The translations under genes were made by a program, and so were the position numbers. The notes under the pieces were generated by a model. That model saw only the letters and a program-made list of their open reading frames with translations, had not been told where the DNA came from and made no database searches. Below, one piece after another: positions 13,468-54,477 of a DNA stretch of 64,000 nucleotides. The first letter of the stretch is position 1. Every line of letters starts with the position of its first letter. This DNA comes from Aphrocallistes beatrix (lineage: Eukaryota; Porifera; Hexactinellida; Sceptrulophora; Aphrocallistidae): NCBI GenBank assembly GCA_963281255.1, contig OY725505.1, positions 62,001 to 126,000 on the forward strand. The letters are read 5' to 3'.

Positions 13468-14048
13468 ATATTTCTAAACATATTTGTACTGGTTTATTTT
13501 ATTTCGATTTTTATTTTCATTCTTCATCCTAATTTCCAATTAAATGATGAACGATTGTCTGCATCCACATTTGTGTTTGGGATCATGGCTTTGTTATCTC
13601 AGCCAAAATAACCAATTAAATTTTTGCCATCTTCACATATGATAGGAATACTGTCTCCAGCTTCTACCAAGTGATTAGACTGGATGTTATTCAATATTAT
13701 AGTCTTAGTTGATGTGGATTAATCTGTCTCAAGTTGTAGGGAAAGCATACGTAGATATGATCAGGTGCAACAGTCTCTTATTCTTGCTGAAAAATCAAAT
13801 TAACAAATATTATATCAAATAAAAATAACATACAGAACACTTTTTTTCAAATAGGTTGCCTCCATAAAATATAAGGAAAATATCCTTTCTTTTTCCTGAA
13901 GCAAGTTGCTTTATTTGGCAACTTGCCTCAGGTAAAAAGAAAGGATCTTTTCCATACCTTTCACAGTATGTTACACGGAAAATCCAATTTGTGGGATTAT
14001 TTTGATTATTTTTTACGAATGTAGTATAGACTGTACATTATAGTGGAT
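13468..14048. other. Intergenic region with a foldback
   Basis: A 580-base gap between two same-strand intronless genes. The only structure seen is the foldback at 13875-13953, which ends 95 bases before the hydroxylase ATG. No coding sequence is visible. Confidence 0.5.
13875..13953. repeat. Short foldback element upstream of the hydroxylase
   Basis: A 79-base imperfect palindrome. The left arm starts GGAAAATATCCTTTC and contains GAAGCAAGTTGC; the right arm contains GCAACTTGCCTCAG and ends GAAAGGATCTTTTCC. The arms of about 35 bases differ at a few positions and are separated by about 7 bases. It is either a small MITE or a transcribed hairpin in the 5' region of the next gene. Confidence 0.7.
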
Positions 14049-15355: not shown

Positions 15356-18300
15356 ATGGTATTCGAGTCAGTGTTGATTGATATTCTCAACCGATTCCTG
15401 GGGCCTTATGTGAAGAATTTAGACGCTTCACAGCTCCAGGTAAGTGTATGGTCAGGCAACATCACACTCGACAATTTAGAATTGAAGGAAAATGCACTCG
15501 AGCAGTTCAACATTCCAGTAAGAGTCCACTTCGGATATTTGGACAAGTTTCGAGCTAAGATCCCATGGAAGAATCTCTACAATGAGCCCACCATCGTAGA
15601 GATCGACGTAAGTTGACTATTGATGCCTTAAGCAGGTATACATATAAGCGGAAATAACCTCACCTTTTGTCTTCTACAGTGTCTCAAAAAATTTTTCCGG
15701 TTGTACAATTAATAATTAATAATTAAACCGGAAAAAACTTTTGAGACACCCTGTATATCAAATCTTGCCTCTCTAAGGTGTAGGCTTATCTAGTAACAGG
15801 CAGGTACGTTGCCACAGGGGAGGGGGCAATGCCCCCTGGGAACTTCTAATTCCTGGCGCAATGTCCCCCCCCTTGAGGAAATAACCTGGTGACGTCCCTG
15901 GTACAGGGGAGGAATTTTGGCGCTAATTTTCCGCTTACAATCTTACCGTGTACAAAGTAAGTATGCCATTCTGGCGAGTGGAAAGATAGTTAGATTTTTC
16001 AGGATGTCTCGAAAAATCTAACTATCTTTCCACGCACAAATATCCTCTTCAAGTAAAATAACTGAATTATTATGAATTACTTTCGAAGGGACTTTACGTC
16101 ATTGCTGGACCCAACTCAGCATTTAAATTCGATCCAGCAAAAGCAATAGAAGAGGCGCGAAACAAGAAACTGCAGGAGTTAGAGAAGTTTAAGCGAATCA
16201 GGAAGAGTAAGAAACAAAAGAAGGAGAAACAGGAAGAAGCTCAAGACCAAACCTTCGCAGAGAAAGTCATAACTCAGGTTACATTTCTAAATTATGATAA
16301 ATCGACTTTGGTGAATTCAAGACTAAACTTTAGTTGGTGGATAGGACACAGCTAGTCCAGTCTAAATTTCATTCTGCCAGTCGTTTTTAAACAGTTTAAT
16401 TTGGCAAAAATTTAAAAAATTTTCATTGAAAAATTCTTCCCCGTGCCAGTATGCATACTTATAGATTCGAATAATTTTATAAAAAATAACTAAAATCATG
16501 TTTGGTTCATTTTAATTGATTGACCAAGCTAAGTTGGCGAAATTTTCACTTTCATTAGCATTCAGTTGTGAACAAATTTAAGATTATAATGCACACTCAT
16601 TAAAATATAACTCGTAAAGTCGACAAATATTTTCACATGTGATACCACTATGATGGCTACAAACCTTATCGCAAGAACTGTATCAGGTGATCAAGAACCT
16701 ACAAGTAACCATAAAGAATATACACATTCGCTACGAAGATATGAATACCATTCCAGGACACATGTTCGCAGCTGGTATCAGTCTGAGCCAGCTTATCATG
16801 CATAGTGTGGACGGAAAATGGCAGGTAGGGTTTAGTAATAGTTTAATTTGGTTAGACAATAGGTCGTAATCTAATTTATATCAATTTAGCGACCTCACAA
16901 GAAGTTAAATTTGCTCCCAATTCCTGTTATAATTTGATTGATGGTGTAATAATTCGAATACATTTTGTGTTGAAGGAATTTGAAAGTTGATAGCTTAGTC
17001 CTAGTTACTCAATACCACATCAAATAGATTTTATTTGACTGAAATTGAGTGAAGTATAAATCTTGAATAATATTTATGAAGGAGGAATACTATAAATGTT
17101 CTCAATTGGCTGAGAAAATGTGTAAAGTCATTGAATTGACCTCGGTTAGTGTTTGGGCTAAGTTAAGAGACCATTTGTCCATGCTTAGCTCGGAACCAAT
17201 GCTTCTGACTCAACCAGCAGTCTCATTTACAAGTTATTCGATCTGCAATGTCTCGCCCTATACTGGAATGTGCAATCAGAATCCTATTACAGACGATTCA
17301 AGAAGAAGGAAGACATATTAAAAGTACTTAGCACGGACATAGCAGACACAGCTAAGCAGCCAACGCATCTTCAGTTCATTTTGATGCCAGTCTCTGCTAA
17401 TGCTAAGGTGTGACTAATGGGATTAATTAATTTAACTTGTTCAATGGTATTTTTACCTAACACAATAACTAGGTCCAACTAGACACCAAGGGGGGACAAG
17501 ATCTGAATACCCCCCAAGCCCTTGTCAACCTTAAAGTCGAGGAATTGAATCTGAGCGTCTCTACGCAGCAGTATCGACAGGCCCTTTCACTTCTCGAAGA
17601 ATTTGACCGACTCGGGAGGAACAAACCGTATGCGAAATTCAGACCGGAAACAGAACTGAAAACGCACCCTAAAGAATGGTGGAAGTACGCCTATAACTCA
17701 GTCCTATCTGAGATACAACCGAAATTGCAGGAATTCTCTTGGGAACACATCAAGCATCATCGGGAGTTATGTAAAAGGTTTGATTATAATGTTTTTTAAA
17801 AATAGATTATTAGCGAGTGAGTCAAGGCATTTTCAGTTTTGTGAAAAATCTCCAACATATACGAGATCACTCTTATTATTGGTACGCATAGGCGCCGAAC
17901 CCGGGGGGCTGGGGGGGCTCGATCCCCCTGGATTCGAAGATGGCCCATAGGCGCGCAATACAAAATTTAGGGCTGAGCCCCTGGAACCCCGGAATTGTCC
18001 TTAGAATTCGAAAAGTTGGCGCACCTGTTAGTACGTACTATATTTGTCCTATTATCCAGGTATATCGCCAAGTATCAGAAGAAGTTACTGTCCACCACAT
18101 CCAACCCAGAGCGCAGTAAGACGCTGGCACTCCTCGAACAGGAGCTAGACGTGTTCAATATCCTCCTGTGTAGAGAGATAGCAGAGGAGAGAGCTGCCAA
18201 ACAGAAGAAACTGAAGAAGGAACAGTCAAAGTCTACTTGGTCTTCTTGGTTGGGTTGGGGTGAGTTATTTAGAAATGTCCACTCTCTATTACTTTTGATT

Positions 18301-21300: not shown

Positions 21301-24300
21301 AGGAAAATAGATATAAACCACTCCAGTTAATACGAATTCTGGATACTGTTCTCTGGTGTTCGTATTAACGAGATTCTACTGTATAATGTATTGTACAGCT
21401 TGAGAAGAGGAATTTGGAATACGTTATAGATACTGGTTCCTTTTTCCCATACTTGTCATTGATACCATTCATAGCGTTTATTATGTGCTTCATATAATGA
21501 TCTAATCATTGCGAAAGTTTCATGTTGCGAATTGACGACACTATTGTGACTGTACTATGTCTGTTCTCTTTCAACTTCTATTTTGGTATTGCGTAATATG
21601 ATCGCACACGTCGAATTAGATTTTTGAACAACATAAATACGCGCTTTATTACTTCATTAATTGAACTTTCACACATACTTTTAGGTCGCTAAGATGGGTC
21701 CAGTTATCGTTCCTATAAGTCCACAGAAAACGGAAGAAATCAACAATCTCTTTGACAATTTAAACCTCCAGACAGCGAATAAAGTATTCATTATGCCAGA
21801 CGACGATTCTGAGGATATTTCTTCTGAATTCTACGACGTTGAATCGCTGGACTCCTCCTCGACTGGGGATACTGCTAGCTTCTCCACTACTGCGTCTGAC
21901 CCGTCAGAAGTTGTGGACCAATCTCAACTCCCTACCTACATCAAGGTATCATTTATTTCACTCTTATTTTTTTAATTTCATCCAACGAACTTTTCTACCA
22001 TGGATATTAACACATACTGAATCGTGATAATATACACATTACGTCTCGAACTTTAAAAACCCAAAAATCTCTGAGGTTTTTCTATTTATAGAAACTCCCA
22101 TATTGTATGGCATCCCCGCCAAAAACGAGTTAACAAAATCCCTAGTCCAATTCGGATTTAAATTAAGATATCTTCTTCTATTGATTCCATTGGAAATACT
22201 TTCTTTCCTATCGAATGGGAACTTTAGACTAAATAATTATGAGATATGTAAAACAGCTTGATAGTAGATAACAAAGCCAAAAACACTGACAATAACAATA
22301 ACAATAACTAAGCTGAAAGTAATGCTCTAACATATGTACACGCCGTGTTCAAAACATTTTAATTATTTATCTGCATCGATTTGTTCGGCGGTCAAATCCA
22401 AAAACACCTGCTCCAGCGTAGTTTGCGTCACGCCGTAGTTGTCTACTGTGTCCTTGATCTCTTCCATGCACGCGAAAATCTCAGATAACTTCGCTGCGTC
22501 CTGCGGAATCTTGAAGTTCGTCATTCCTGTATGCGCACGTGAGATGGTATGGGTTGGAAATCTTGCCGCTATGTGTCGTTGCAGCTGATTTTGATCGTGC
22601 TTGCATTTCACAGTCAGTGTGTAGCCACTTCCGAACTTGTTCTTCAAATGCTGAAGTGTGCCTAAGCACTTCATTCTTCCATTCACCATTATTGTCAGCC
22701 TGTTACACAGAGCCTCGCATTCTTCCATGCTACGGGAAAGTTTATTAAAATCTAACAATAACAGACATGCCAACTTGAGCTATGATAAAAGCGAGACGCA
22801 ATAGAAAAGTATTATACATAGAATTAAAAAAACGTCCCACCAAAAACGGGAGTTGGAAAGTATGCAATAATTTAGCTGCAGAGTTCTTGGAACATCGATA
22901 AGATGAACCGTAAATTTATACTAATGCTCCATTATGTATTAACTTACCTATGTGAAGTTATTACAATGCAATGTCCCTCTTGGCTGTACTCAGCCAGTGT
23001 GTCCCATAGCAACCGCTTAGAAACTGGGTCCATGCCTGAAGTAGGTTCATCTAACAGCAGCAACGGAGGGTCTCCTACCAGGGCGATGCCAGTACACAAC
23101 TTCCTCTTGTTTCCACCACTAGTCGTAAGCAAGTAATTCTAGTTATTTTTCTGATCATACTCTATTGAAAAGGTCATTGAGTCTTACCTGTAATTCCCAC
23201 ACAACTTGTCACCATATTCAGTTAGGTAGAGTCGCTCTATAATCTCGTCTACAGCTTCTTTAAGATTAGTTCCGTTGAGTCCTCTGATTCTGCCGAACAT
23301 CATCAATAGCTCTCTTCCTGTCATTCTGTCAATCAAGGCATCGTATTGCGGACAATATCCCATCAGAGCGCAAGCCTGAATAAAGAATTTAATTTATTTG
23401 TTAGTAAAATGAAAGAAACTTCAGATGTTTTTTTAATAATTGAAAAATTAACTTATATTAAATTGGGCAAACCAAGGATATTATTTTCAAGCACTTCCTT
23501 AGCAACAACATAAGAACGCGTTACATCCCTTCTAGCATCTCCCTAACAACATACGAGCACCTTACATTCCTTCTAGCATCTCCCTAGCAACATAAGAGCA
23601 CCTTACATTCCATCTAGCACCTCCCTAGCAACATAAGAGCACCTTACATTCCATCTAGCACCTCCCTAGCAACATAAGAGCACCCTACATTCCTTCTAGC
23701 ATCTCCCTAGCACATAAGAGCACCCTACATTCCTTCTAGCACCTCCCTAGCAACATAAGAGCACCTTACATTTCTTCTATCATCTCCCTAGCAACATAAG
23801 AGCACCTTACATTCCTTCTAGCATCTCCCTAGCAACATAAGAGCCCCTACATTCGTTCTAGCACCTCCCTAGCAATATTAGAGCACCCTACATTCCTTCT
23901 AGCATCTCCCTAGCAACATAAGAACAAACAATATTCCTTCTAGCATCCACCTAGCAATTTAATAGCTCAAATATTATTTTCAAAGGATATTTAAGATTTA
24001 TTTTTATTGGTATCTCATTTACCTGTTCTATTCTATATCTCAAATCGATTCCGTTTATAAACGCTGCTCCCGACGAAATATCTTCATCCCCAGTGATCAT
24101 CTTGAAAGTGCTGCTTTTGCCCGCTCCATTCTGACCCAATAAACCGAATATCTCTCCTCTCTTCACTTCCAAGCATACATCTATCACAGCTCGTAATGCG
24201 GGTGCATTATCGCATAGAGTCAAGTTGGTTTTGTATGTCTAAATAAGGTTTGAGACAGTTACAAATGCACTGATATTGAAGCCCATACAAAGTACATAGT

Positions 24301-27300
24301 TGCAATTATTTCTAATAGGAAACTCAGCATTCAATCAGATTAAATCGCATTTCTAATTAATTCCGTAATAAGGATTCTGTTTTGTAGTAATTCATGTTTA
24401 CAGAGAATTTATCTATCCCATCGGTATCTGCTCCCATCAAAATTCCATTCTCTCACCTTCCCAATGTTATATAGTGTAAGGATATTCTGGCTTGCTCGTG
24501 GATTGTTATAGAAGCTTAGATCTTCTCTCGTCACCTTCGTTTGCTCGTTCATCACGTCGCTATCCACGAATGAGCTTACGCCATGTGTTGAGATATCCAT
24601 TATTGGACTCGGTCCTAACTTATGGAAAGGCGACCTTAACAACTTCCAAAGTTTCTTTATTAAATCTAAATAGAGCAAAATTTAAAAACAAATCCAACCT
24701 CTTTTTTTTCAAAACTTACTTGATTCTAAGATATACAAGGCGAATAGGAAAATTACGCCTTCAAGCGCCATCGCGATCACAAACTTTCCAACTCCAGGAC
24801 TTTCAATAGCGAGGATGTTAGATTGATAACTAATTTTTTTTAAATTGCAAAACTCTTCGGTCTCAGCATTTTCAAGGCACAATCCCCTGTAATAGTCGTT
24901 TGCTACCATCTCTGAGAGGCCTTGTCCGAGGCAGTAGTTGGGCATAAACAGAAATATCTATTGGAATAAGATGTTTCTATTAAATAATATTCATCCTTAA
25001 CTTTGGCCGACTAAACTAATATTTTAGTGAGACGGATTACATGCATTATAACCTAATCCGACATTATTTTTACCAAAACTGACTTTGGACATTAGAAATT
25101 GCACTACATAATACAGTCGACTCCGCTTTATAGGGTCACATCGGTCAGAGGACATTTTGCCCCGATAAAGCGGAGTACCCTATTAACCGGAAATATTTTA
25201 TATTAGCTTCTATGTGTGAGAGCTATTCCGGTCCTGTCAAAAGTGGCCCTATTAACCAGTGACCCTATTAAGCGGAGTCGACTGTACATAATTTTTCGTT
25301 TCCCAAAGGGTGTCGGATTAGGCAGGTTCGACTGTAGTAATATTGGAGCTGATTAAGGGATAAAAGGGATTGACTTATGTGTAATCCCTGACAGAGGCGC
25401 CGAACTCTGGGAATCATTACCCAATTGCTGGGAGGAGGGAGGGAGGGGGGTTCACTACAAAAGTCGTTCGGCGCCTATGACTCTGATGTGATAATATCCT
25501 CATCTAAAAGTTACATCGTTCCCCAATGCCAAGTTTTAAATATTCATATCTCCTTCTTACCCATTTCAATGCATTGGCTGCATCAGTTAACTCTAAGACA
25601 TCCAATAAGAATATGATCAAAACAGCTGCACATCCAGTCCCAATGTTAAATAGCACTGTCAACACGAATGCAGTGGTTGCTCTGTTGAAGAAATATGAAA
25701 ACAGATACATCAGTGGGATGACACTCCAACCGTATTCTAACAGTAGCAACGCGACCACTAAAATATTCTCGTTTTGAAATGCGGGCACTTGGAAAGCTAA
25801 GAATAGGATAACTATCAAAATGCATGGGGCTATATAGTTGAGCATGTCCCATAAGAATGCTGAGAGCCAAAATGCAGATAGATGAACACCGGAAACACGT
25901 TGTATGTGTTTAGATTTGCAAGATCTCTCATCGACTATGAATACCACGAAACTACTAGCCAAGAAGGCCATCCCGAATACCATATCGAATGCAACTGAAA
26001 ATCCCACTGCGAGCCTAAAATAGGGAATTTAAAAAAAAATGTAATTGAACACTACGAATTTTTCAAGCACATTCCACTTACCCTACTAGGTCGTTAGCTT
26101 TGGTAGTGAGACTTGCTGGTTGTGGCGCGTTGTAGCCTACAATTTCATCATTTTCTGCTCCCGGAATCGCCCGCAAAATGCTATTAAAGATCTGGTTAAC
26201 TGCTAAAGGCACCATGTGGAAGCCTTGATTTGAGAACCAAGCCGTTACATTAGAACCTCTGTATTCAGCTCCGAACTGGTAGAACTGGTCTACATCGATG
26301 TTAGACTTTTGTTTGTAAGCATTTAAGATGAATTCTCCAATTTGGCTCTGGTTAGTTGCGTTCATGTTCACTATCTGAGCTGAAGAGTTCATTGCAAGAT
26401 AGCCATTCAGCGCCAAACTTCTGTTGATAGCTAAAATATTTATCCACAAATTAAGGCATATTCCGACCATTTCCATACTTGCCAACTGTCCCGGTTTTTT
26501 CACTCTTCTATTGAGCTAATTTTCTCGAGTGTCCCGCTTTTACATGAAATTTCCCCATTATGTCCCGCTTTTTTTACTCATGTATAATACTTCTCTATTG
26601 CGTCCCGCCATGTCCCGCGAAATTCAACGCTGCGTCCCGTTTTTATAATGGCTCAGGTTGGCATGTATGTATTTCATATGTACCAAAAAGTTTAATTTCG
26701 AGTTAGAGGTATATATATTCTCATTCAACTTGAATTAAATATTTACCTTCGCTAGAAGAGTCCGTTACGATAGGAACAAAACTCTGGCGATATATTCTGG
26801 TAGTCATCTCCAACGGTCGTTGTTCAGCTAATCCGGGCACGGTTATACTAACTATCAACGCGAGTAGAGTGAACATAGTTGGCAGTAACAGTTGTGGAAT
26901 TATTGCTTTGTAATTTCTGATCGTGTTGTAGTAGCGTTTCACCAACATCGCATAAAATTGTAGAAACCAAAGTTGTACACCGCGTTTTGGCTTGATATGC
27001 GGTCCCTTTATTAAACATGATAAAATCTTGCTACTACAGATCGACTTACATAATTCTATGAAAACTTACCATGTTATTCAGGGGCGTTGCTTCTGATACA
27101 TAATCTTTCGCAGATATTTGTTTGCTACTCTGAATTGCCCGTTTCGTTTGCTCGATTGATTTGATGTTGAGTGACAAGTTGGTCATATCCACCGGGCTCA
27201 TTGGCACTATTTCTTGTGTCCCACCGGTATTCATCGGTTCGATTGTCAATTTTCGTCCGGCAAGAAGGTTCTCTAACTCTTCATCATCCTGTGCACCGAC

Positions 27301-30300
27301 TTGCAAAAACACTTCTTCCATCGTGGTAATGCTGACTCCATAACTTGCTATTCCAATTTGGTCCTTGCGTGTTTGAAGTTCATCGAACATTGTTGGGAAT
27401 CTCTTTAAAAATTAAAAATAATAAAATTTAGAACGACAGAAATTGCTTTATTTTAAAAAATTCAATCCACTTACTTGGCTCATATGTTTTGGCAAAATGA
27501 ATGTTAATTCAGCACCAATATTTGACTGTAGTTTCGCTTCGGGTACATGTTTTGTGATTAGTCGTGTAATTGCTGGGACATTGCACATCTGTTCTTTAAC
27601 GCATGTCATATGATAGCCGACACCGAATTTAGACTTTAGAAACAATGCACTACCACAGCACCTAATCATTAGATTCAAAATTTCAAATAGGAATTAATAT
27701 TAATTACAGTCGACTCCGCTTAATCGGGCCACTTTTGGCAGGACCGGAATAGCTCTCACACATAGAAGCTAATACAAAAGATTTTCGGTTCTCCGCTTAA
27801 TCTGGTCAAAATGTCCTCTGACCGATGTGACCCTATTAAGCGGAGTCGACTGTAGTTAAATAAATCCCTGGTCTATTCTACTTACTTGATCTTGCCCGAT
27901 GCCATGATGGCTATTCTATCTCCCAAGAAATCAGCTTCATCCATGAAATGTGTTGTGAGCATGATCGTTCTGTCCCTTTTATACTTGAGAAGTAAGTCCC
28001 ATGTGTCCCTCCTCGCTCCTGGATCCATCCCTGTTGTTGGCTCATCAAGAATCACCACCTAGTAATTGCCGATTATGTCAATACCATATTTACCATTATT
28101 GGCATTTTTTCTAATCATTACCTGTGATTTGCCTATAAGAGCGATTCCTACGGAAAGTTTCCTTTTCATGCCTCCACTTAGATTCTTCGTATATGTCCTG
28201 TTCTTGTGCAATATTCCCAAAGTTTCCATTAGTTCATCGGCCTCGATCCGGACTTCCTTCCAACTTGATCCTTTTAACATGCCGAAAAACCACAAATGCT
28301 CTCTCACCTAATAAATTAAAAAATAATAACAGTTATTCATTGTATCTGTAGGTGAACAACACAGATAGCTAACTCACTGTCATATTATCGTAGAGCACGT
28401 CGTGTTGCGGGCATAAACCCAGACTATTACGAACTTTACTGATCTGTCGACAGATGTCAAACCCATTCACTTCAGCTGTCCCGGTGGTTGGTGGGTATAA
28501 TCCGGTTAGCATTGACATTGTTGTAGTCTTACCGGCGCCGTTGTGGCCAAGTAGTACTGTGATCTGGTTTTTGTACATTTTGAGGCTAATATCGTCAACA
28601 GCTCTCTTCTTCTTTTGTCCCAAACCTCCGAAAACCTTGAAGCATTGTGATTATAAGTTAAAGGAGAAAAACTATTTGGTGATTTATATATAGTATATAC
28701 GACTTTCAGATAGATCAGATTTTTCATAGATATGTTTTTTAGGTTACAGACCAGTAAAAATATTGCACATAAATAAGTTTTAAATAAGAAAAACTGTATA
28801 ATTTTGATAATTTTGATTTGAATGTGGAATTTGCATTAATTAGGATTGAAATTCCACATTTCTGATCAAAATTCTACATTGGTTTTCTGACCTAAATGTA
28901 GTAAAGATAGACTTTATGTTAATTTATTCATACCTTTCCCAAATTAATGATCTCTATCCCAATACCTTCATTTCTTGGCTCTGACTCGATAAACTCTTGT
29001 CTCTCAGTATTTCTCTTTTGATATCTCTTCCCTCTCGAGGGGAACCAGTAGGAAGGTAGACATAAGAAATAGAATGGCTTTGGTACCCCAAAGTCTCCAG
29101 GAAATATATTATCGATGTACCACGCAAGAATGGTGTACAGTTTGAAATCAAACCACAACATTATTATGACATATAGTAATGCGAATTGATCGCCTGGGAT
29201 AGGACTGTTCATTATATTTGCAAAGTTGGCACTGTCTCCTCTGGCTTCAAATTCAGCGAAAAGTCTTGAACCCAGTGCCAAAGCAGTATTTGAAAGTAAA
29301 CATAGCATTATTTTCCCTTGGTAAGGCAACTGGTCATACGTGTCATCACCTTGTATAAAAAAATATGGCACATAGGTAGCGAAAAATATAACACCTGCGA
29401 GTACCGTAGCAACATTTGTCTTTGAAAAGAATGTAGCGATGAGAGTTGCAAATGAAATCGATGCCATCGTATATAACAGTAGAAATAAGAAGAATAAAAA
29501 GTTGCTCGCATAAACGAATATTTCGAATCCACTAATCAGAGCCATAACCAGAATTAAGGTGATCATTTGGAAGATGAAGTTTTTCAGATACCATGCAAAC
29601 TTTTGAGTTAACCCTGAGGCTCCCATTATTTTCAGTGACTCCTAAACAAATAATAGTATTAAAAGATAAAAAATTTAATAGATTTAAAAATATTCACCAC
29701 CGAAAACATACCTTCAACTTCTTTTCTTTCTCATAAACGAGAGATCTTACGATGAACATTGTCGGTATTATGAACGAAAGCATCAATAACAATGGCAATC
29801 CATAGGACAATGCGTAACTGAAGTCATATTTTATCCAACTACGATAAGGATATCTAGAAAATTTACAAGAATTAATTTAATTCCTCAGACAAGTTCTTTT
29901 ATAGAGATACGTTATTTTCAACTTACTGCTTAATATTAATGTCGAGATTCAAATTTTGCGCGGCATTGAGCTGTTCGCGCCTATATTGGATGATGGCCTG
30001 TTCCAGAGCTGATTGTATCGGGATGTAACCTTGGTATATGTAGCCTGGTGAGTCTCCAGTGAGATTATCGTACTTCGCTCTCGGCCCTTGTGCCGCAACT
30101 CTTGGAAATAATACATTTGTCCTCCAATCTCCTGAAAAAAGAAAAAATATCTAACCGAACCCGATATCAAAATGTTAATATAAAAATCTTTAACTAATGT
30201 AAACTGCTGAATCGCTAGGATATTAATGTGTTTGAACTAACCTTTCTTTGCTATTACTGTCTTTAATAAACTGGTGTCATTTTGGAAATCTATCTTATCT

Positions 30301-39300: not shown

Positions 39301-42300
39301 AGATAGCTTACATCACCTTGTTAAGTTCAGACACCGTATGGCAATATTTGAAAAATGGTCGAGTAAGTTAAATTTATGGTTAATTGGTTTTCACATATGT
39401 AATTATACAAAAGGAAATTGGATTAGTTAGTCAATTTTTGTCTAGATATGGAAGACTCTTTCAGGAGAGATTATCAAGAAACTTGAGTCAGCTTATAAAG
39501 TTGATCCAAATTCGACTTTAGATCATAGTGATCTTAAAGTAGATTTTCAGACTATGCAATTATTCCAACCTTACACTGGTAATCTTCGCAGAACACATTT
39601 TTCAGGTGTTTCATTGGAACTACAGGTGGTTGTTTTTGCGTTTATGATTTGCCTATATTGGTTAGGTAGAACATTTTAAATTCATATTTGGATAAATTTA
39701 GGTTTCATCTAGTCAGCTATATTTTGACATCAAGATCGCTTCAATCCAGGTTGACAATCAAATGGCGCATATTTTGTATCCCATAGTTTTCCATTCTGTA
39801 GCTTTGCCAACCGATGCTCTCAATTTTGACCCCAAACCCTACGTGGAAGCTAGTCTAATTTTGCTACTCAGCAAGAAAATGGGTAATGATAGAAATGATT
39901 TTTTTCGGACTATTCGACACATATATTTCTCAAATAATTTAGTGATTTTCTGATAGTTAAATATAGTTATGGAAATCATATATTTTGTACGAATGATATT
40001 CCTGAGGTGAATCTTCAATCAGTTTATCTTTATTACACTATTTTTAATCTTTTAGTCAAATCACTCAACGTCCGCTATTTTAAAATTCTCGTTCAAGAAA
40101 TGAGTTTTAATTTGGATATTGGGTTTGTTGAGGGAGTGATAGGTCTTTTTGGTGATCTGGAACAAAGAGAATGGACAACAAAAGAGCTCTTTGACTTAGA
40201 TTACCAAAAGGTTAGCTCAAAAGTGCTCACGTATAAAATTTAGTAGAAAACAACAAAGTTATCTAATCAGTGATTACAGTAAGACTTGCTATAGAATTCT
40301 GGAATGAAGTTCTCAGCAAATCTTATTATAATATTCAATTAACTACGTAAACATTATACATATTTCTACTTAAAAGGGTGACATAAGCGGGCTTTATTCT
40401 TAGCCATAGTTTTATGTCTTATAGCATACTCATGGTGAGTTGAATTAAATTAATTTCTTGGACATAAACTGGTATCATCTTTCTTTTTAGAATGATTTTG
40501 TACACTACTGTAGAATTCGGTAATATTTTAGCAATCTTGCCCAAATTCTGCGTAACATTTCCCACTATTAAATAATTAATTATTTTATTCTTTATTTTAT
40601 TAACAAATACATAATTCTATGAATAATTATTCATAGCCTAGTAGTTAGTTCATTAAAATACTAGGCGAATAAATTTAAAGTTCCTACATTGAAATTCATT
40701 GTTTGAACATAAATTAATTGGTAGTGACATCTCCAATCATTTTCTTTTTTTTTTAAGGAAAATGCATTGGTTTGTTAGTCTTGTATTCACATATGAAGGT
40801 TCAACTTCTGTTTGAGGGGCAAGAGGACTTGATTCTAGCATAGGTGATATGAGAGTCAGCGATACATCATTGTCAGTGTATTTATACATTTGCTCTTCCC
40901 TTATCTGTCTAGTAATATCTTCAGAAGATGAAAAACCTGGATTGCAGATCTGTGGATTGGGCTGTTTATAGCGATATCTACAAATTTTAAATACAATTCA
41001 ACCTTGTCACACAAACGGTGGAATGTCGAGTACAAATTTAAATTTTAATATACCTACTTTTCGTCGTAAAACTGCATATTCATATATTCGTGCTCTCCAC
41101 GTGCGTTAGGGCTTGGAGATTGCCTACTAAATGCTGAACGACAGTGAGTTATGGGACTTTTTAACTTGGTGTCATGTCCTACTGCTCTGAGTTTCTCTTT
41201 AGGCTCCGTCACATTGCTATCAAGTACTTTAAAAGATAATTTTTCTTTTGTTTGATTCTTGTTCCTGTTGCTGTATTGGTAGTAATCCTAGGTTTGAAAG
41301 ACTCGAGTGATTTTCATTGCAAGTTTTTATCAATGATAAATTAATATTGAATTTAAGGCCTATCTAACTATGTTTAGGAGCGGATGTTTCTAGATAAAGT
41401 GGAGGTCTTAATTAATTAAGACTCGTTAGAATATTCTGGAATAATTTCACAGGATATACTATATTGTAACTTACAAATTGAGGTGGGAGGGTGTGTGTGA
41501 CTTTATGTAGGCCATTGTAATCAGATATGTTTTCATAATGTCCTTTTGTTCCATCACATTTAGCAGGTATTATTTCCTCCACTGCTTTTTTTATTTGATT
41601 GCACTCATTCGATAATTTTTTTGAGAGTGAATATTCAATCTTTCCAAGAAATTCTAAATGAGGATATTCACATTAAAAATTTACAAATATTTTTTAACTA
41701 TTGCATTAAAGAATTAAAACTTACTGTAGATTTTTTGTAGTAACTCCAATTCTATTGTTTCCATTTTGGTCTTCTTATCTAGCAATAAATGACTACCTAG
41801 TAATATGTATATATGTACATAATTCCATTTCTATCTTTCTATTTTATACTGTTGGTAGTTGCAGTCACATTATGTATGCAGACTGGCAATAAATACGTTT
41901 TACCAGAAAGATGATATCTACCTAGTTTATGTATATTACATTTCTAACATATCTGATATTTCCTTTTTGCAATTAATATTTACTCAAGTTTATTTGTTTA
42001 TTTCAGATAATCAACGCAAACATTACCGAGTTGGAAGGCTCAGTGACTGCTTCACAAGGAAATAAACACTTCATTGATTACCTCCATCTTTCTCCGCTAA
42101 AAATTAACCTCAGTTTTAGTCTGCAACATGGTAGTGAGCCTGTAGACAAACGGCTCGCTAGGAAGGTTAGCTGTTCTCCGTCTAATATATATCGACTTTC
42201 TTTCCAAAGACTTCTTGGTCAATATCCACTCTATCTCACAAGGCATCTTGTGAAGGAGTCGATATCGACCAAGAAGTCTTCGGAAAGAAAGATTATTGGC

Positions 42301-45300
42301 CAATACACCTTCGGAAGCAAGGTGTTTGCCAATACGCTTTCATGAGACGGAATTCGATAGGGCATTTATACTTTGAGTTCCATTCGAAGGCTTGCCTATT
42401 GAAACGACCTCAGAACAGTTGAAGTAAACAAGATCTCAAGATTGAGTCTGATTTTTTATTTTTTTAACAGGTTGTGACTACCAAAGCGTTTCGAGTGTTG
42501 CTTGATTCGCTTGGTGTACCTGGATCAGCAGAGAAGGTATTGCTTCAGCTCAAGTACCTAGATATCCAGCACAGATCTATGACACAACGTCAGATAGTAC
42601 GTGCATTCTACAAGCATTACAAACAAGCTGGACTCACACAGATATACAAAGTAACTTGTGTACAAGTATCTTTATAGCCACTTTCCCCCAAAGCATCGTG
42701 AATTTTTGCACCTTTTCGGAAAAATAGATATGGGAAATCTCAATATCTCGGCACATGTTCAATTTTAGTCGATGAATCACTGAAAACGAAATGCCCACAT
42801 CTTATCTTCCCCATATCTATACGAGTTCTATTCATAAAGGCAAAGTACTTTAAAAAACTTTTTGTTTAGATATTACTTGGCCTGGATGTGATTGGGAATC
42901 CGTTAGCTTTGATTCGCCAAATTGGAGGCGGCGCGGTAGATCTATTCTATGAACCCTATCAGGGTGCAATTGAAGGTCCTGAAGCTTTTATAGTAGGCGT
43001 TGGACATGGTATTTCCAGTCTGGCAGGCAGTACTGTTGGAGGTGTAGCTGGCGCTGTTTCGAAGATTTCTTCAACAGTGGGCAAAGGTCGGTCTGGGTTA
43101 AAGTAATTTCGAAAAGATTTTATCGTATTTGCTAGAAAATAAATAACAATTCAATTCTCTGAAGAAATTCTAAGAAGGGTGAAAATTGATGTTTTGAATG
43201 GATTCAATGGGACTAAAAAATATTCCTTTTGTACTAACGAATTTTTTAAAGGCTTCAATTTAGCCCGAAATAAAGATTTATAGACATCTATATATACGTA
43301 GGTTTAGCTGCATTATCATTTGATACACGTTATCAGAGGTCTCGAAGAAGACAGGACATTCGTGCTAGGACTGCAGGAGAGGAGTTTTTCAGGGGAGGAA
43401 AGAGTTTTGCTACAGGATTATTCGAAGGGGTAACTGGTAAGTTCATCTAATAATAGTAAGGGATATTTGTTATTGGAAATGGCAGAAAGTAGTTGTGTTC
43501 GCGGAATTTATATTGTTAATGTAATTTGTTTTAAATCAGCGCTATTCTCAAAAGGTTTTGACAATCAGGCCAAAGTATCTGCGAAAAATTTGACCTTGTC
43601 GTCATTACTGATTTTAGTTATCCATATGAAGAAACAAACCTGCTTGTTAGCAACCTTGGTACTTGGGACCTTGGATCAAAGGTTTTAGTAATTTAGCTTT
43701 GTATACACACTAACAATTTCACCACTACAAAATATTTACCAACAAATGCTATAGAAAATATTCAAGGATTTTCATTTCTTGCTCTTAACAATCCTAACTT
43801 CTTTGCTGTACTCTTCCCACCATATAAGACACAGACACGACTAAATCCTAACGTTATCAGATGACCTGCAAATCTGTGTCCAGTAGTCTCGTCTTTTCCG
43901 ACGATGACTTTTAGTTTTTTGCTCGCTTTCTCAAATGTACTCTGAAAGTTTGGGTTAGTTATTAAGCCCTTTTCGTCGAAAGTTGAGTTGAATGGCATAT
44001 TTATAGAATCAGAAATGGATTCCACTTGAAAATCTTCTGCTGACCTAATATCTATTATGATGCCAACAATTTCGTTTTTTATATTTATAGAGCGCTCATT
44101 GAAGATACTTAGCAAATCCTGTCCGGTGATGGAAAAAGATTTATTATTGCGTATGTGCGCAAGCTTCTGTTGTGGTTTATCAGGCAAGGGGCGAGGGTTG
44201 TTGATATCGAGCGGTATCTGGGCATATTGCCTCGTTGGACCAGATTTGGGCGTTCGTCGGGCCAAACGTTCTGCCTCTTCTAAACATTTATCGATGTTGA
44301 TATCAGGAAGATCAGAAAATAGGAGGATACACTCATTGAACCCGAATGACATTAAATTGACTTTCAACTGCCAAAGTATTCCAAGACCGATAAATAACGG
44401 GAATGTGCTATCATTGACTAAGAGTTTATTCCAGATCACAAAGATTTTTTCTAGTGGGAAGACATGTGTGAATACAGTAAGGAACCATGGTATAGCGTAC
44501 AATTCCGGTTGGAATCCTATTTCGAAAAGGTGGTTATAAAGAGATGGTGTATGGAATGCTATGAGTTGTGAGAAAACGGCAAGGTATTCCTGCATCACAG
44601 GAGAATTATCTTTTAAAAAGAAGTTGTGTATGTATTTGTCAATAAATTTCGATAGAGAAGCGAATGCAATAGCTTCGCTATTGAAATTTATAACAAGAAA
44701 CGTCGCAGCTAATGAATCCAAGCCTTGCCAGTAGACAAGATCTTTTTTTGAATTTAAAAAAGCTTTTAAAAGTCTTTTCAGCTTGATATGCCCTTCAGAA
44801 GATGCAAGTAATTCGTTGTACTGGTGACATCGTGGGATATCGACTTCGATTTGCTTGTCAATAGGTAATTCTGTTTCCTTATCCACTCCATCGTATAGTT
44901 CCTGGTAGTTAGTTTTGACATCGAGTAATGCAGCCCAAATCTGAGATCGAAATAATGGGCATACATCCTTTATGCTCTCAGTTCGAATCTGATTTTTAGT
45001 ATGTGGATAACCTGAAAAGTATAAAATTGCATTATGTTGAACTTGGATAACTTTTAGAATACACATAATCCTACATATCGTTATGGAAAAAAAGTAAATT
45101 TTGCGTAAAATTGTATTTTCTCTGACCTAGAATCAAAATAAATGTGTTGAATTTTTGGAATTTTGAGGGCTATAAAATGTGTTTATAGAAATGTCTTATT
45201 TCCATTCTGGGGTTTGTAGTGTTTCTTCAGTACTTTAGTTTACAATCAAAAATCAAAAGTTAATATCCATAGTCCAATAAACTATTTTTGCCTGTTTTAG

Positions 45301-48300
45301 GTTTTGAATAATTCGGTCATATTTCACTCTATAGTTATTTAACTTACCTTCTAAAAGCCTCCTGAATATTACGACTCGGTGAAATTGATATTCTACATCC
45401 TTATCTTTGATTGAGGGCGGTAATGCCTGTGAATCCTTGGGCACTTGTGGTGGTATGCTTTGATCGCTGAGAATTAGCAGTGGGTAGAAATCAGGTGTAG
45501 TCAGATGGTTTAATCTCTCGTTAAGTTTCTCCATGCTGATGGTAGTATGTTGATCTAGGAGAGATATCTCAGATTAGTGTCAATATTATTATCTGTACAC
45601 TTCTCTGAAGGCGTCTGTAACTAAATAACCTTATCATATTTTAAAACAATTTAGTCCAGACCATATATCGAAAACCAAACAGCTGGAAAGACTATTCATA
45701 TTTTATTTCAAAACTATAGTACATACCTGAATACAGCATCAATATTTCCTTTTCTTGCCCAAATCTTTCCTTATTTTTTGTTGTCACTTGTGGTAAAGAG
45801 CATATGGGAGCTTTGGACTGTACTAATCCATTTTTTTCCAACTCGTGCATTAGATCTCCTCCAGCCAACGACCATAAATAAAAAACTTCATGTATATTCC
45901 GTTCTTGTAGTAGACTTCCAAAAGTTTCTACTTCTCCATTGTAATTCTCTAGATCCGTGAGATCGTGTGTAAATTTACTTATATCCAAGTTCGCAGTCCT
46001 ATTTTTAGTTGTTTCAAAACATGTCGCTATGATGGGCAAATAAGGTGTGTAGAGAATGGCATCTTTTATCAAGGGATGGTCTACCAAATCTTTCGGTAAT
46101 GATCGAAGGCCCAAATTAGGTGTCAAACATTTCGTTAGGAAATCAATGAATGCTTGTGGGATCGAGAAGAAAAGAGTTGGAGCTTGTTGTGTGTCAAATA
46201 AGAATTGGGGAATGGACATGTACTTGATTGTTGGGAGATGTAGGATCCTCTTGCAAATGTGACCCAAGGTGTTTCTTCGAACGAGATCTGACCATATTGG
46301 CTTACCAATGATGGCTTCAATTAAAATAATACCTAAAATATGCTATTTAACAAAGGTATCAACACAAGTTTTAAAAGGGCTTTAATGACTACGAAACACA
46401 GTTTTTAAAGCCCAAAAATAGTCAAACTCACCTAAGCTCCAAATGTCGATGTTCTTATTTTCCTGAAATTTCTTCATCCCCGATGGTCCGTCTCTGATGA
46501 GCTCAGGCGGCCAATAAACTGGATTTCCAATTGGAAACTTAACATATTCGCCACAGTATGTGACGTAATACATTCCAAAACTTGACATCTTTACCTCGCC
46601 ATTCTTTGTAACATGAACATTTTCACTTGATAAATTTCGGTTCACCATCCCATGTTCGTTCATGTACACCAAACCTTCAATTATACTTTTTGCCAATTGT
46701 CTAACCAATGCTAAGTCAAGTGAGAATTCTTTCAAAACATCTGTTTCTCCAAGGGTTTTCTTGTAGTACTCACTAACGATTAGCATTCTGTTTTGCTTAC
46801 ATCTTTGAATGTGAATATATTGGCATAGATTTGCATGTGTTAAGCGTTTTAGTTTCTGGAACCTACCTACAATGTTGATGCTTGTGGGTACTAAAGAGAC
46901 TCCATTTGCAGGGCCTCTGTTGATTAGCCGGTCTGTAGCAAAGAATGATAAAATGCCGATTTCAGAATCTCCATATATTGACATTACATCAGTTTAAATG
47001 TGCTAAAATACTTTTAAAAATTGTAACTATATTTGTATGTAGTAAATGGATCTAAATGTTTAAAAAATAGAAGATCTATCTTATTTTTTCTAATATTTCT
47101 GTTTAGAAATGAGATTCATTGACTTTCTTTATCAATTTAATATACTTGCTATTTAGCATAGTCTCGTTTTCCCGGAGATGTCGAGAAATGGTGATTTTAC
47201 TTCGTAAACATTTAGGTGTCTATCAATTCGAATGGTTAGACCACATGGTAGAATAGAAGTAAATACAACTCGACATTTGTGCCTTATTAAATTACAAGTC
47301 ATCAAATCAGATGTTTAATTAACAGATGGAAATTACTAATAGAGTCAAGTAACACTCACGAATCTAGTTTAGGAATATGGTTGTATAACATCACTGAATA
47401 AGTAATCGAAAACCAAACTGTATTCTATAACACAGTGAGAGTCAAAAACCTAATCTAAGTTAATCCCATTTTTATGCGTTATTTAGGTGTTGTTGCTCAG
47501 CCTGTGCGAGGCGTAGCACAAGAGGGTGCAGTCGGTTTAGTGAAAGGAATTGGCAAAGGATTAATCGGTGTGGTGGCCCGACCTTTAGGCGGCGGGGTAG
47601 ATTTACTTACAGCGACTTTCGGGAGTCTACAGAAGGCTGTGAGTGGAGATAAAGTTTTGGTGAAGAAGAGGCAACCTAGATTTATCGGAGAAGATAAAAC
47701 AATTAGAGTAAGTTTTTAAGTGCAAAAGGTATTGTATTTTGCATTATTAATGCTTTCTTGGGGCAATTTAATAGAGTAGCCTTTAAACCCAGGATGTTAT
47801 AATTTACGTAACGTTCTTTGTTATAATTTACGTAATGTTCTTTGTTTTAGTATACATTACGGCCTTTGTTTCAGCATGCTGATCTATATATCGGTTTTGC
47901 GACAACTTGGCAACATTGTGTAGCATATTATCAGAGTATTTCGGCTATTATAAAAATAGACTAGTCTTCCTACGTATTTATTAATTGTAACTTTAAAATG
48001 ACCTACTTGTGCACTAGATTATACGGAGTACCACGTAAATACACTAAGATATTTTGGACCTAATCACAGAACTTTCATTATTGATTGATTAGTAAAGAAA
48101 ATCTTAAAAAGCACACAATTTTATCAAATGTGAAGGTTTATTCAATCTACCCAAAATAATTTTCGCATTGTCATGTTATTTGAGAGATTCGTTTCCTCTG
48201 ACAGGTTCAGATGATCTCTTTATTACCTTTTAACAGTTTTATTTGTTTTATTTTCACCTTCATTCTCCATCACATTCGTATTTATATTTAGAATTTTGAT

Positions 48301-51300
48301 CTTCTTTTTTGGTTTCTTGTTCTTTTCAACTTTAGTCACATTATCCTTTTCACCAAGATCCAGTTCTTTAATGGTCTTATTCGATTCATGATTCTTTTCA
48401 TGTTGGATCTTAGTTTTGTTCTCAAGGAACATGATATCTCTCCCTCCTTTTGTGATCTTAATATCTGCATCATTTACAGCCGCAACATCCGTTATTAAAT
48501 TATTAGATTTCACTCTTCTTTGTTCTTCTGTCATAGTAGTTGCAGGCAAGATGCCATCATTTATATGGAAAATTCCCCCTTCATTGCCAGTGTTATAACT
48601 TTGTAAGAATAATAACGTTGGACTTGACAATAGAGATAGAACTCCAAGGAAGAGTATTAATTTGGCAACTATAGCGCGTTCATTCGCTGTTGACTTGGTA
48701 ATAAACATAATTGCAGGGCAGATAAAGCTCAAAAAGGCACCAGCATAGCCACCTGTTATGTTCAAAATAATTCCAATATCAGGTACTAATAGAGCCATTA
48801 TCATTGATCCAATGATAATGAAGAGTGAAATCAGTCCAAACTCGAACTTAGGGATGAATACTTCAGATCTTCCTCTTGATAGAAGTAGCGAATAAATGCA
48901 GGAGCGCATTGGGAAGATCACCATGGGATAGGAGATGATAACACTTATACAGAAAGCTAATCTAAGTATTTGATGTAGGAAATTTGTAGATAGGTTTTGA
49001 AAGAGGTCAGTTTCTAACGTATCGTTCATAAATGTAAAATAACCGAATAAACCCACTGTCGTATAAATCATGCATACTATGAACATTGCTCGCACTACCA
49101 AGGGTTTAACTTCTTGTACACCTTTCATGGTATCTGGAAATGTTTCCAAGTATATGAGTACTTGTGCTTGACATGAGAAACCCGTCATTACGATAGGCAT
49201 ACATATCAATAGTCCACTAGGATCGAACAACTTCAATTTGTCCTGGAATATAGATTTAGGATTTAAATAAAAGGCTTCAATAAAAAGATAGAAAATAAGT
49301 AGGGCGTATGAAATTAGAGAAAAAATACTCAAAGGAACCAATCTTTCAACTTGACGTATAAGGCATAATGGGAAAATGATGACAATTGCGAAAAATACTA
49401 TCACTTGTTCTCTGAAAAGTATGCTTTCTGTCGCGGGTACATATATATTCAGAATATCTGGGATTATATCACCGATAATCACAAACGATGCCACTGCGAT
49501 TCCGAATATAAAGGCTATTATACATGCCGAAATAAAAGATTTTCCAAAACGCCCATATATGTTTTCCGCTGTGCGTTCATAGGATGAGGTTGCTGTCACT
49601 TGCGCCGTTTGTAAGAGAAGTATCGAAGATTCAACACTTAGATAACCAGCAGTGAATATGAGGATTGCCCCAAGAATGCATCCGCATTGTTGAATGCAAA
49701 AAGGCATCGCAAGCATTGGCACACCCAGCATTGTGTTACCAAGATTTAGCACGTAAGGCCATGCATAAGATCCTTGAGGAGGAGTCATGATGTTTTGGTA
49801 CCAAATATATGAGGAATTGAAGGATAATCACTTGAATGGATTCAGCGAAGAAGCAGTCATGTTATGTAATCTATTCAACTTGAAAATTATTCTAATGGTT
49901 ATATATTAAATTAAAAGAGTTCCACTGTGGCAGTCTGATTTGTTTGATTCGCCCCAGATTTCCTAATTGGAGTTAACCATATTTTATGATTATTCCACTT
50001 TATTTTTGGTAGCTTAAAAAATAATATTTTTATTGTCAATGAATTTAGTAGATTTCATTTTTCCTACTTTTGTTAATAATTCAGAATTCTAAATAAAATC
50101 TATTCCATAATCAATTGTAATTAACATCCCTAATTTATTCAAAAATTGGTATTTGTGTCACTAGCTATAATCACTAATATCGTAACTTGAGTTGTAGGCA
50201 CTGACTCAATTTTGCCCTCGATTGGATAATTAATCATCTCAACATCGTTAATATTATCTAACATCTAGACAAATATATGCATGAATTACGAGATAGCAAA
50301 AAGCTTTCCCTGAATTACTTTTTCAACAATCATAAAACGCTAAATATGACTAATAATGAAAAACCTACCTGCTCCAAACATCATTATCTCTGAGATAATC
50401 TACTAATTCTAATTAACCGCTTCATAAATAAGATCAGCTGTTGATAACCTCAGTATTGAAATGCATTAGGCTAACATCTGAAAAGTATATGGTATTCTGG
50501 GTAGGGAGATTATCTAATGATTCTCTAAATCTTATATATACATGAGCTCTGTGTTTATTCATCAGTGACCTGTTTGTTGTACTTACTGCTTTCCGATTGT
50601 TCAGGTTCGTCTTTTTCAACATGTGTGGTCGGTCGAAATTGAATGTTCTCATCAAAATTGAAACTGTTGCGTACATAAATTATAATACAACACTAAATTT
50701 AGTTCAGAAACAATAGAGCTTCCTAGTTATAATGGACTGTATAAATATCTTCTAATTCAATGAAGTGTATTCACTTAGAATTAACTCTATATCTTTTATT
50801 TATTATTGGATTTAGCAAACCTTTGTACATTTTCACCGCATCCACTTTAACTTTACCCAACTAAACATTTACATTGTAAATTTCTGTGAACATGACACAT
50901 AATCCTATTCCGAGTGCCTCGGCTCGTTCCGAGTTTCAAGTGGGAGGAAAATTCCGGTTGGTGAGAAAAATCGGGAGTGGTTCATTTGGTGATATTTATC
51001 TGGGAGTGAACATCACCAATGGTGAGGAAGTAGCAGTGAAGCTAGAGTCTCTGAAAGCTAGACACCCTCAGCTCCTCTACGAGTCTAAATTATACAAGAT
51101 TTTACAAGGTGGAGTCGGGATCCCACATATTAGATGGTGAGTTTTTATACATATAATAGCCATAAATATTTGTGAATTTGAGTATCATTTTTTGTTATCA
51201 TAGGTATGGTCAAGAGAAAGATTATAACGTTCTCGTAATGGACCTTCTTGGCCCTAGTTTGGAAGATCTATTCAACTTCTGTTCACGACGTTTCACAATG

Positions 51301-54300
51301 AAGACAGTACTTATGCTGGCTGACCAAATGATTGGCCGTGTTGAGTATGTCCACAATAAAAATTTCATTCATCGAGACATAAAACCAGACAATTTTCTGA
51401 TGGGGATTGGACGTCACTGTAATAAACTTTTTTTGATTGATTTTGGACTGGCCAAAAAGTACCGTGATACTCGAACACGTCAACATATCCCTTATAGAGA
51501 AGACAAGAATCTAACTGGGACAGCAAGATACGCATCGATCAATGCTCATCTCGGTAAGTGTCTATTTATATTTTTTCTTATTGAGAGTCCTTATCTTTGA
51601 AAAGAATCCACATTTCTTGATAGAAATCCTGTCAAATTGAATAGGAAACATTGTTGAAGTATTGCATATCACGATTTTCTTAGAGAATATTCAATTTATC
51701 GCGAAAACTATTCACACCATACTTTCTTATACGTCATACTTATTAAACAGGTGAAATATATTTCCATACATGGCCATGAACTTGAATAATCAGATGCAGT
51801 ATGAGAATCTCTATGATTTGTGGTTTTCATATTTAGTACTAAATATACAATGTCATTTTGAAGGTATCATGCTCCTCTCTAGGTATTGAACAAAGTCGCC
51901 GAGATGACATGGAGAGTTTGGGCTATGTTTTGATGTATTTCAATCGATCTTCTCTTCCCTGGCAAGGCCTCAAAGCTGCCACAAAAAAGCAAAAATATGA
52001 CAAGATATCTGAAAAGAAAATGTCTACTCCTGTTGAAGTACTCTGTAAAGGATTCCCTGCTGAATTTGCCATGTATCTCAATTACTGTCGTGGGTTGAGG
52101 TAAGCTGATATATAGAAACCAGTTTGATCAAAGGACACGGCGGGGTATACGGTTTCGGGCATGTTTTGTAATTCCCATTCACAAAAACTAAGACTTGCAA
52201 TGAATAGGAATCTAATGCAATCGAGATATCAAGCAGCAGGATTAAAATGACGTCTGGCTTGAGATAATCACTAGCAGGATCGGATAGTTTTTACTTTTAA
52301 AAAGGAATACATAGATCAGGTCATTAGTTTGAAATCCATCCATTCGATGATTTAATGTTATTAGATCATACATCGTGAGCTTGCATGTCGAGGATGGTTA
52401 ATGATACTTACATTTCTCCTTTTGTCCAAATTAAGAATGATGGGTTGTCCTGGAATATCCAATTAGTTTACTTTTCAGCATAAGATCTTTTTTTCTGCCT
52501 CCCTTCGAGCTTATATTCCAAGGATCTAGCAATGCACTTAAAATTTCTATCCAAATACCTAATAAACAAAAAATTTTATAACTTACCTTTTTATACTCTT
52601 GTAGATTTGAAGAAGCTCCTGACTATATGTATCTTCGTCAGCTATTCCGCATTCTATTCAGAACTCTGAATCATCAATACGACTATACATTTGACTGGAC
52701 GATGCTGAAACAAAAAGCTTCCGCGCAAAGTGCTTCGAGCTCAAACTTAATCACTGGCATTTCCACAACTTCCGCAGTTCCACCCATCCCGACGTCTACA
52801 AATCCGGGAAACCCCGGCACAGCCACAAAGCCTGCATCTCCAGTCATACTTCTCAACGATGACCAGAAACGAGATCGGATGAAGCCAGGAGAAATTCCCA
52901 AAAAGTTTTAATTATCAACTATCTTTTTAGTGGCTTTTCTTCCAACACGTAATAGAAAGGCAGTCTTGTCGATTTAAAGATTTGGCTCTGTCAATCATGA
53001 GTGCATTTTTGATGCACACTTACCCTTGTTAATTCTTCCCTAAGTTAATTACGCTACAATTGATTATCAACATACTATGCTACCTCCTATCACCTTCTAC
53101 TCCTATTTATCTTATGATTAGTGAAACTTACATTATTTGACTGTTTGCTAATTCACACACTTTATTCAAAGCACATTGTGTCAACTTTGCGTTATTTTAT
53201 TACAACTACTTGAGTTTTCACATGGATAGCGGTATACATATCTCATACAGTTTGGTTTTGAGGGGGACTTTATCAAAAGTGCAATTAATAAATGCTCCAA
53301 GGTCCTAAGTTTTGACTATAAAAGGGCGTATTATAATACAATCCTTGTCTACAGAATGAGCGTCATCGTAGAAAAGTGATTCAATATTTTCTAGTTATTT
53401 TGACTTAAAAATTGCTGTCGTATCTAAGATCGACAACTTTTAAACCAATGTAAGTATATGCTAAGCACCAATTGATGTTAATTAAGCAATCACAATTGAC
53501 AAATATCTTCCTGTCGATAAGGATGTTTAGCCATACCTAATTATTGTATCACTACACACATGGTGCTCTTCAAGACATCTCCAATGTCTCAAAGTTGATT
53601 AGTATAAGCAACGTCATCTGATATAACTGATGTAAGGTAATTCGAATTGAAATTACATGCGTATTTTTGTGTGTAGATGGAACTATTGTGGTTTATTGAT
53701 ACACTTTTGAAAGTATAAATTGGTTGTGATTAAGTGTGCTACGTATTTATGTTTGACTCAATTAGCATATAAAGAGTAAGAAATCATTTAAAGAATTTAA
53801 CCTACTCGCCTATGTGATACGTGTAAAAGGCAACTTGCTTTACAATGATGGTGTGAAAGCGTAATAATCCTATCTAGTGGACTTAAACAAAAAATAGTAG
53901 TCAAAATATATATATATTGTGAAATGTTAAATAGAAGAACAATTACAAAAAAAACAGAAGAGATATGTATATTCGTTTTATATTCTTTATGAATTGTATC
54001 CATTCGTACGAATTGAATGAAAAAAAAGATTATTTAATTAACTGAAAAAATTAATTTAATTTATTTTAGGTCTTCGATCTCAATTCAGCGCTCGGCAATT
54101 TCATCCTTAATGACATTGAGAACGGCAAATATCTCAGAACAGTAGTTTACAAAGGTCATCTGCTGTTAGATGAGACCAAGAATATTTCGATCTACATAGC
54201 GACTAACAAGAAGTTAATAAAAGCAGAACGGAAAAATTTTGACCCCTTGAATCCGTGGAAGGATGAAGACATATACCCTTTTGAGGAAATAACTGATTCA

Positions 54301-54477: not shown

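What the first reader, a model, noticed from the sequence alone, without database searches (positions are those of the whole stretch)
15356..54477. One VPS13 gene carries five other protein-coding genes in its introns
The VPS13 reading frame is continuous in phase across introns of 9.6, 1.8, 4.0 and 6.4 kb, which enclose ABCA (minus), an unknown 4-exon gene (minus), TBCK (minus), and an SLC38A10-like gene (minus) plus CK1-alpha (plus). Nested genes are known, but five intact nested genes in one host is unusual. It implies either accumulated insertions or expansion of host introns around neighbouring genes, and transcriptional interference between strands seems likely.
Basis: partly seen in the sequence, partly recalled or inferred. 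Interest (0 to 1): 0.78.

Follow-up and report, generated by a model that had tools for sequence, protein, structure and literature searches.

The report
Sponge VPS13 gene hosting four genes
In what looks like a glass sponge, one very large gene for a lipid-transport protein carries at least four complete, unrelated genes inside its introns, and some of them stay linked to it in related records; genes within genes are already known to be common in such animals.

Summary
The host and four of the five claimed nested genes hold up. A VPS13A/C-type gene runs from 15356 to 54477 (24 model exons, one a 2-nt placeholder; 4,028 aa). VPS13 homology runs through all four long introns, well at introns 22 and 23, weakly at intron 12. 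Intron 12 (9,644 bp) holds an intact ABCA3-like gene (-), intron 22 (4,050 bp) TBCK (-), intron 23 (6,362 bp) an SLC38-like transporter (-) and CK1-alpha (+). The 'unknown 4-exon gene' in the 1.8 kb intron has no support: no Pfam (minus frames) or Rfam match. My coding-score test proved powerless, so it stays open. TBCK's best hit is Oopsacas minuta (75%), so I read the genome as a glass sponge. In four other records VPS13 shares a contig length with TBCK and/or the SLC38-like gene: the linkage looks old. Nested genes are 12.4% of genes in the glass sponge Aphrocallistes (PMC10282587), and Drosophila dunce hosts five (PMC10835880). I call this a new, rich, probably conserved example of a known arrangement. 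Splicing across the long introns is inferred; no RNA was available.

The parts
15356..54477 (+). Host gene: VPS13A/C-type lipid transfer protein, 24 model exons (exon 8 a 2-nt placeholder), 4,028 aa, no internal stop
21946..31589 (+). VPS13 intron 12 (9,644 bp), phase 0, hosts ABCA
   Evidence: alignment segment 104-1446 to solved VPS13C crosses the join; exon 13 start conserved in the 3 relatives that reach it
22363..30938 (-). ABCA3-like full ABC transporter, 17 model exons, 1,710 aa, nested antisense
31590..38598 (+). VPS13 exon 13, a single 7,009-bp coding exon (VPS13_M and VAB)
40211..42006 (+). VPS13 intron 18 (1,796 bp); claimed 'unknown 4-exon gene' not supported, not excluded
43437..47486 (+). 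VPS13 intron 22 (4,050 bp), phase 1, hosts TBCK
43762..46984 (-). TBCK orthologue, 4 exons, 871 aa (protein kinase, RabGAP-TBC, rhodanese), nested antisense
47708..54069 (+). VPS13 intron 23 (6,362 bp), phase 0, hosts two divergent genes
   Evidence: Pfam VPS13_C match spans the join
48223..49788 (-). SLC38-like amino-acid transporter (Aa_trans), single exon, 521 aa, nested antisense
50892..52911 (+). CK1-alpha, 4 exons, 372 aa, nested on the same strand as the host

Best explanation
This is a VPS13A/C gene, most likely of a glass sponge, whose introns 12, 22 and 23 house four independent protein-coding genes (ABCA3-like, TBCK, SLC38-like, CK1-alpha). Shown from sequence: intact coding frames of host and guests, and host homology on both sides of and through the long introns. 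Inferred: the host is transcribed as one pre-mRNA of about 39 kb from which the gene-bearing introns are spliced out, and the nested genes use promoters of their own. Also inferred: the nested genes entered VPS13 introns as DNA segments (three of the four have introns) before several related lineages split, and have stayed because moving one out risks the host.
For: No internal stop in any of the five coding regions. A 3,990-aa model aligns to solved VPS13C in segments 104-1446 and 3447-3905, whose bounds contain all four long-intron joins. Pairwise alignments to five animal VPS13 proteins run through the joins, with 37-40 of 40 residues aligned on each side at introns 22 and 23. The Pfam VPS13_C match spans the 6.4 kb join. 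Genome searches show no spare VPS13 end elsewhere: VPS13_N at two loci, VPS13_C at one. Shared contig lengths: 566,867 (O. minuta VPS13C and TBCK), 570,142 (VPS13, TBCK, SLC38-like), 192,826 and 141,358 (VPS13 and SLC38-like). The O. minuta VPS13C protein covers only exons 13-18, as expected if annotation broke at complex introns.
Against: No transcript evidence for any long-intron junction. Splice sites and phase are imposed by the model. Shared contig length shows linkage, not nesting, in the relatives, and only one of those records is named. At intron 12 the pairwise alignments are weak (17-40 of 40 residues aligned per side) and its donor and acceptor score low (0.1 and 0.9). At intron 18 one of five relatives aligns only 23 and 9 of 40. 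The 2-nt placeholder exon (19045-19046) shows that the model near 18.9-19.4 kb is incomplete. The coding-score part of my model has no demonstrated power on held-out genes, so gene calls rest on homology.
Confidence: 0.87

Rival explanations
1. VPS13 is split here into two to four separate transcription units whose products are joined by trans-splicing or act as separate subunits.
For: Leader sequences were predicted on 4% of A. vastus long reads (PMC10282587, passages). O. minuta carries a VPS13C gene model that starts at exon 13 and ends at exon 18.
Against: Homology runs through the joins. The start of exon 13, with divergent sequence before it, is the same in 3 of 3 relatives whose sequence reaches it, as for a conserved splice site.
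Confidence: 0.07
2. The arrangement is an assembly artefact that joins unrelated pieces.
For: Only one assembly of this region could be read.
Against: VPS13 shares a contig length with TBCK and/or SLC38-like in four other records. The contig here is 3.48 Mb. A near-identical VPS13 exon 13 (2320 of 2325 aligned residues) sits on a different, 747,206-bp record.
Confidence: 0.02
3. A fifth, small protein-coding gene does lie in intron 18 (40211-42006).
For: The O. minuta VPS13C protein also stops at this intron. GC reaches 0.42 at 41051-41170, within the range of true exons here. My coding-score test cannot exclude it.
Against: No Pfam match of note in the minus frames or in a hand-joined candidate, no Rfam match, GC 0.303 overall. 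The plus-strand frames were not scanned.
Confidence: 0.3

Closest known systems
Nested intronic genes of Aphrocallistes vastus (PMC10282587, passages read)
   Same: Glass sponge; 2,432 nested genes of 19,578 (12.4%); the authors say many are conserved.
   Different: The main text does not mention VPS13; here four nested genes sit in one host.
Nested intronic genes of the ctenophore Hormiphora californensis (PMC8527503, passages read)
   Same: 2,357 nested genes in 1,654 hosts; its Figure 4 legend describes a single host with four nested genes.
   Different: In that example two of the four are doubly nested; here all four lie directly in host introns.
dunce of Drosophila melanogaster with Sgs4 and four ng genes (PMC10835880, passages read)
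   Same: One host gene carrying five nested genes.
   Different: Those are glue and short intronless 'ng' genes in one intron; here the guests are unrelated conserved genes in three introns, three of them with introns of their own.

Membership tests
Nested intronic gene arrangement | Guest gene inside a single intron of a host | tested here: met
   Coding regions of 4 guests lie wholly between consecutive VPS13 exons; transcript ends were not seen
Nested intronic gene arrangement | Host transcript spliced across the guest | not testable with these tools
   No RNA data; homology only
VPS13A/C family | VPS13_N, M, VAB and C domains in order | tested here: met
   alignment to solved VPS13C and VPS13A
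TBCK | Protein kinase + RabGAP-TBC + rhodanese | tested here: met
   (75% to O. minuta, about 40% to many animal TBCK)
CK1-alpha | Best match to CK1-alpha over other CK1 isoforms | tested here: met
   678.6 bits to alpha against 536.6 to delta
ABCA | ABC2-type membrane domain and two ABC ATPase halves | tested here: met
   second ATPase half whole, first only in part because the piece scanned was cut; N-terminal 753 aa, best solved relative ABCA3
SLC38A10 | Orthology to SLC38A10 within SLC38 | not tested
   Aa_trans met; the two solved relatives are both SLC38A9, weakly matched

The most novel reading that the evidence does not exclude
VPS13 in glass sponges is a locked multi-gene nest: four conserved genes (three of them tied, from recall, to endolysosomal or membrane lipid and amino-acid handling) trapped in its introns since before several glass-sponge lineages split and kept together by selection, perhaps with shared regulation and a divergent promoter between SLC38-like and CK1-alpha.
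Probability: 0.25. Interest if true: 0.55.

Novelty: new member of a known kind. Interest (0 to 1): 0.36.

Why it matters
It gives a testable case of long-lasting nesting: several conserved, unrelated genes in one host, with shared contigs in relatives at 51-75% protein identity. It also hints at how automatic annotation can break such hosts: the O. minuta VPS13C protein covers only exons 13-18.

Tried and rejected
Rejected: growth of the host around neighbours, because ancestral VPS13 parts lie on both sides of every guest. Retrocopy origin for ABCA, TBCK and CK1-alpha is unlikely because they have introns; it stays open for the intronless SLC38-like gene. Intron 18 as a repeat: the genome search returns only itself.

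Led nowhere: searches of prokaryote and viral contigs for relatives; NCBIfam. The coding-score test: four of seven known coding stretches beat 40 shuffles, but all four overlap frames the model was trained on; with the tested stretch held out, 0 of 7 did (one scored below all 40 shuffles), so I dropped it as evidence and raised the odds of a fifth gene from 0.2 to 0.3. In one search the printed 'upstream' fields of five of the eight relatives, which start inside exon 13, are a slicing error and were not used. The base-rate estimate uses ctenophore numbers. Other genome copies of ABCA and CK1-alpha were not searched for.

Full report
What the window is. The window is G000:C19:62001-126000 of a 100.5 Mb, 28-contig genome; C19 is 3.48 Mb. 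The best hit of the nested TBCK protein is Oopsacas minuta LOD99_3583 at 75% identity over 100% of the query. I therefore read the genome as a glass sponge; the species is not identified.

The host. Open frames, VPS13_N matches and a home-made splice model, first without hints and then with peptide hints, give a VPS13 gene of 24 model exons, 12,087 coding nt and 4,028 aa, with no internal stop. The model allows only GT (or GCAA) donors, AG acceptors and matching phase, so those are built in. Exon 8 (19045-19046, 2 nt) is a placeholder that keeps the phase; a real short exon there was not found. Introns 12, 18, 22 and 23 are 9,644, 1,796, 4,050 and 6,362 bp; the other 19 run from 65 to 996 bp.

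Are the pieces one gene? Pfam gives VPS13_N, M, VAB and C in order, and the VPS13_C match (593-706 of the 740-aa C-terminal piece, whose last exon starts at about residue 606) spans the 6.4 kb join. Against solved VPS13C the earlier 3,990-aa model aligns in segments that include 104-1446 (containing the join at 913) and 3447-3905 (containing the joins at 3551, 3781 and 3855) (the printed alignment was cut before the first join, so I rely on the segment bounds). Global alignments to five animal VPS13 proteins, from a gar, the sponges Corticium and Sycon, a crinoid and Hydra, run through all four joins. At introns 22 and 23, 37-40 of 40 residues align on each side, though identity to the right of intron 23 is only 7-15. 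At intron 12 it is weak, 17-40 of 40 per side. At intron 18, four of five align well and the crinoid protein only 23 and 9 of 40. In the genome VPS13_C rings once, in the last exon here, and VPS13_N at two loci. The other locus, on C9, is about 12 kb with three long frames, part of it withheld; by eye its third frame resembles a VPS13 C-terminal part, though one search did not ring there.

The guests. ABCA: 17 model exons, 1,710 aa, ABC ATPase domains and an ABCA1-like C-terminal domain; best solved relative of its N-terminal 753 aa is ABCA3. TBCK: 4 exons, 871 aa, kinase, TBC and rhodanese domains; with the O. minuta protein as query, 4 of 53 genome matches are this gene and the other 49 are 23-35% identical. 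SLC38-like: one exon, 521 aa, Aa_trans; the two other genome matches are 26% and 29% identical. CK1-alpha: 4 exons, 372 aa, 678.6 bits to solved CK1-alpha; its start lies 1.1 kb from the SLC38-like start, head to head.

The fifth gene. The three minus-strand frames of 40211-42006 give no Pfam match better than E 0.25 and Rfam gives none at E up to 1. GC is 0.303 overall, with 120-bp windows from 0.18 to 0.42; true exons here run from 0.34 to 0.50 and short VPS13 introns (one of them this intron) from 0.24 to 0.45, so GC does not decide. The coding-score test looked null-like but failed on 7 of 7 known coding stretches when these were held out of training, so it carries no weight. The plus-strand frames were not scanned against Pfam. 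I count four guests and leave the fifth open.

Conservation. Three protein searches score capped candidate sets and list, for each protein cluster, only the longest contig. Among hits at 51% identity or more, VPS13 has 8 rows, TBCK 2 and SLC38-like 7. Identical length is taken to mean the same contig. Four VPS13 rows and four SLC38-like rows share no length with another gene; two of these eight (P0121, P0241) are nearly identical to the window (2320 of 2325 and 520 of 521 residues). None of the 11 SLC38-like hits carries a name or an NCBI source. The O. minuta VPS13C protein covers exons 13-18 apart from three stray residues. At the start of exon 13 the three relatives whose sequence reaches it (P0122, P0124, P0125) diverge upstream and agree downstream of the same codon; at its end the relatives' frames diverge or run out within 2 to 24 or more residues after the same codon, except P0122, which continues into exon 14. 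This shows linkage and a conserved exon, and makes conserved nesting likely; it does not prove nesting.

How unusual. A. vastus has 2,432 nested genes of 19,578, 12.4% (PMC10282587, passages). H. californensis has 2,357 in 1,654 hosts, with a figure of one host holding four (PMC8527503, passages). dunce holds Sgs4 and four ng genes (PMC10835880, passages). If guests per host followed a zero-truncated Poisson or a geometric law with the Hormiphora mean, about 23 or 44 of 1,654 hosts would hold four or more, a rough yardstick from another phylum. A human survey of mostly noncoding guests found 23 of 74 hosts with two or three (PMC3192792, passages). Searches that join VPS13 with nested genes or hexactinellids (3 papers, 10 of 63 listed) showed one paper with the word VPS13, PMC10901741, which names mouse Vps13b for cryptic splicing at simple repeats, not this arrangement (passages).

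Mechanism and interference. Because ancestral VPS13 parts lie on both sides of each guest, the guests must have come to lie inside existing or gained introns of an already complete host. Three have introns, so a DNA-level move is the simpler route; the SLC38-like gene could be a retrocopy. CK1-alpha lies on the host strand, so host transcription must pass its splice and polyadenylation sites; in mammals SAFB proteins are reported to keep nested genes from acting as gene traps (PMC10901741, passages). Whether the strands interfere is open: the abstract of PMC8467205 reports signs of interference without expression divergence in mammals. No expression data were available here.

Noticed in passing
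window 23506-23957: 41-bp tandem repeat (11 copies) in an ABCA intron; diverged relatives on C13 and C18.
   Followed up: partly
G000 C9:176936-189028 (-), L017-L019: A second VPS13 gene in about 12 kb with three long open frames (part withheld), a contrast to the 39 kb host.
   Followed up: partly
window 48223-52911: SLC38-like and CK1-alpha start head to head 1.1 kb apart inside one VPS13 intron: possible two-way promoter.
   Followed up: no
window 31590-38598: A 7,009-bp coding exon inside an otherwise short-exon gene; the exon is shared with related records.
   Followed up: partly
window 3660-3992 (-): T-box domain fragment.
   Followed up: no
window 9787-14813 (+): DUF92 membrane protein, PDZ protein and fatty acid hydroxylase reading frames upstream of VPS13.
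   Followed up: no
window 57106-61609 (+): Immunoglobulin domains followed by a tyrosine phosphatase domain, probably a receptor phosphatase; cadherin domains follow at 62645-63793.
   Followed up: no
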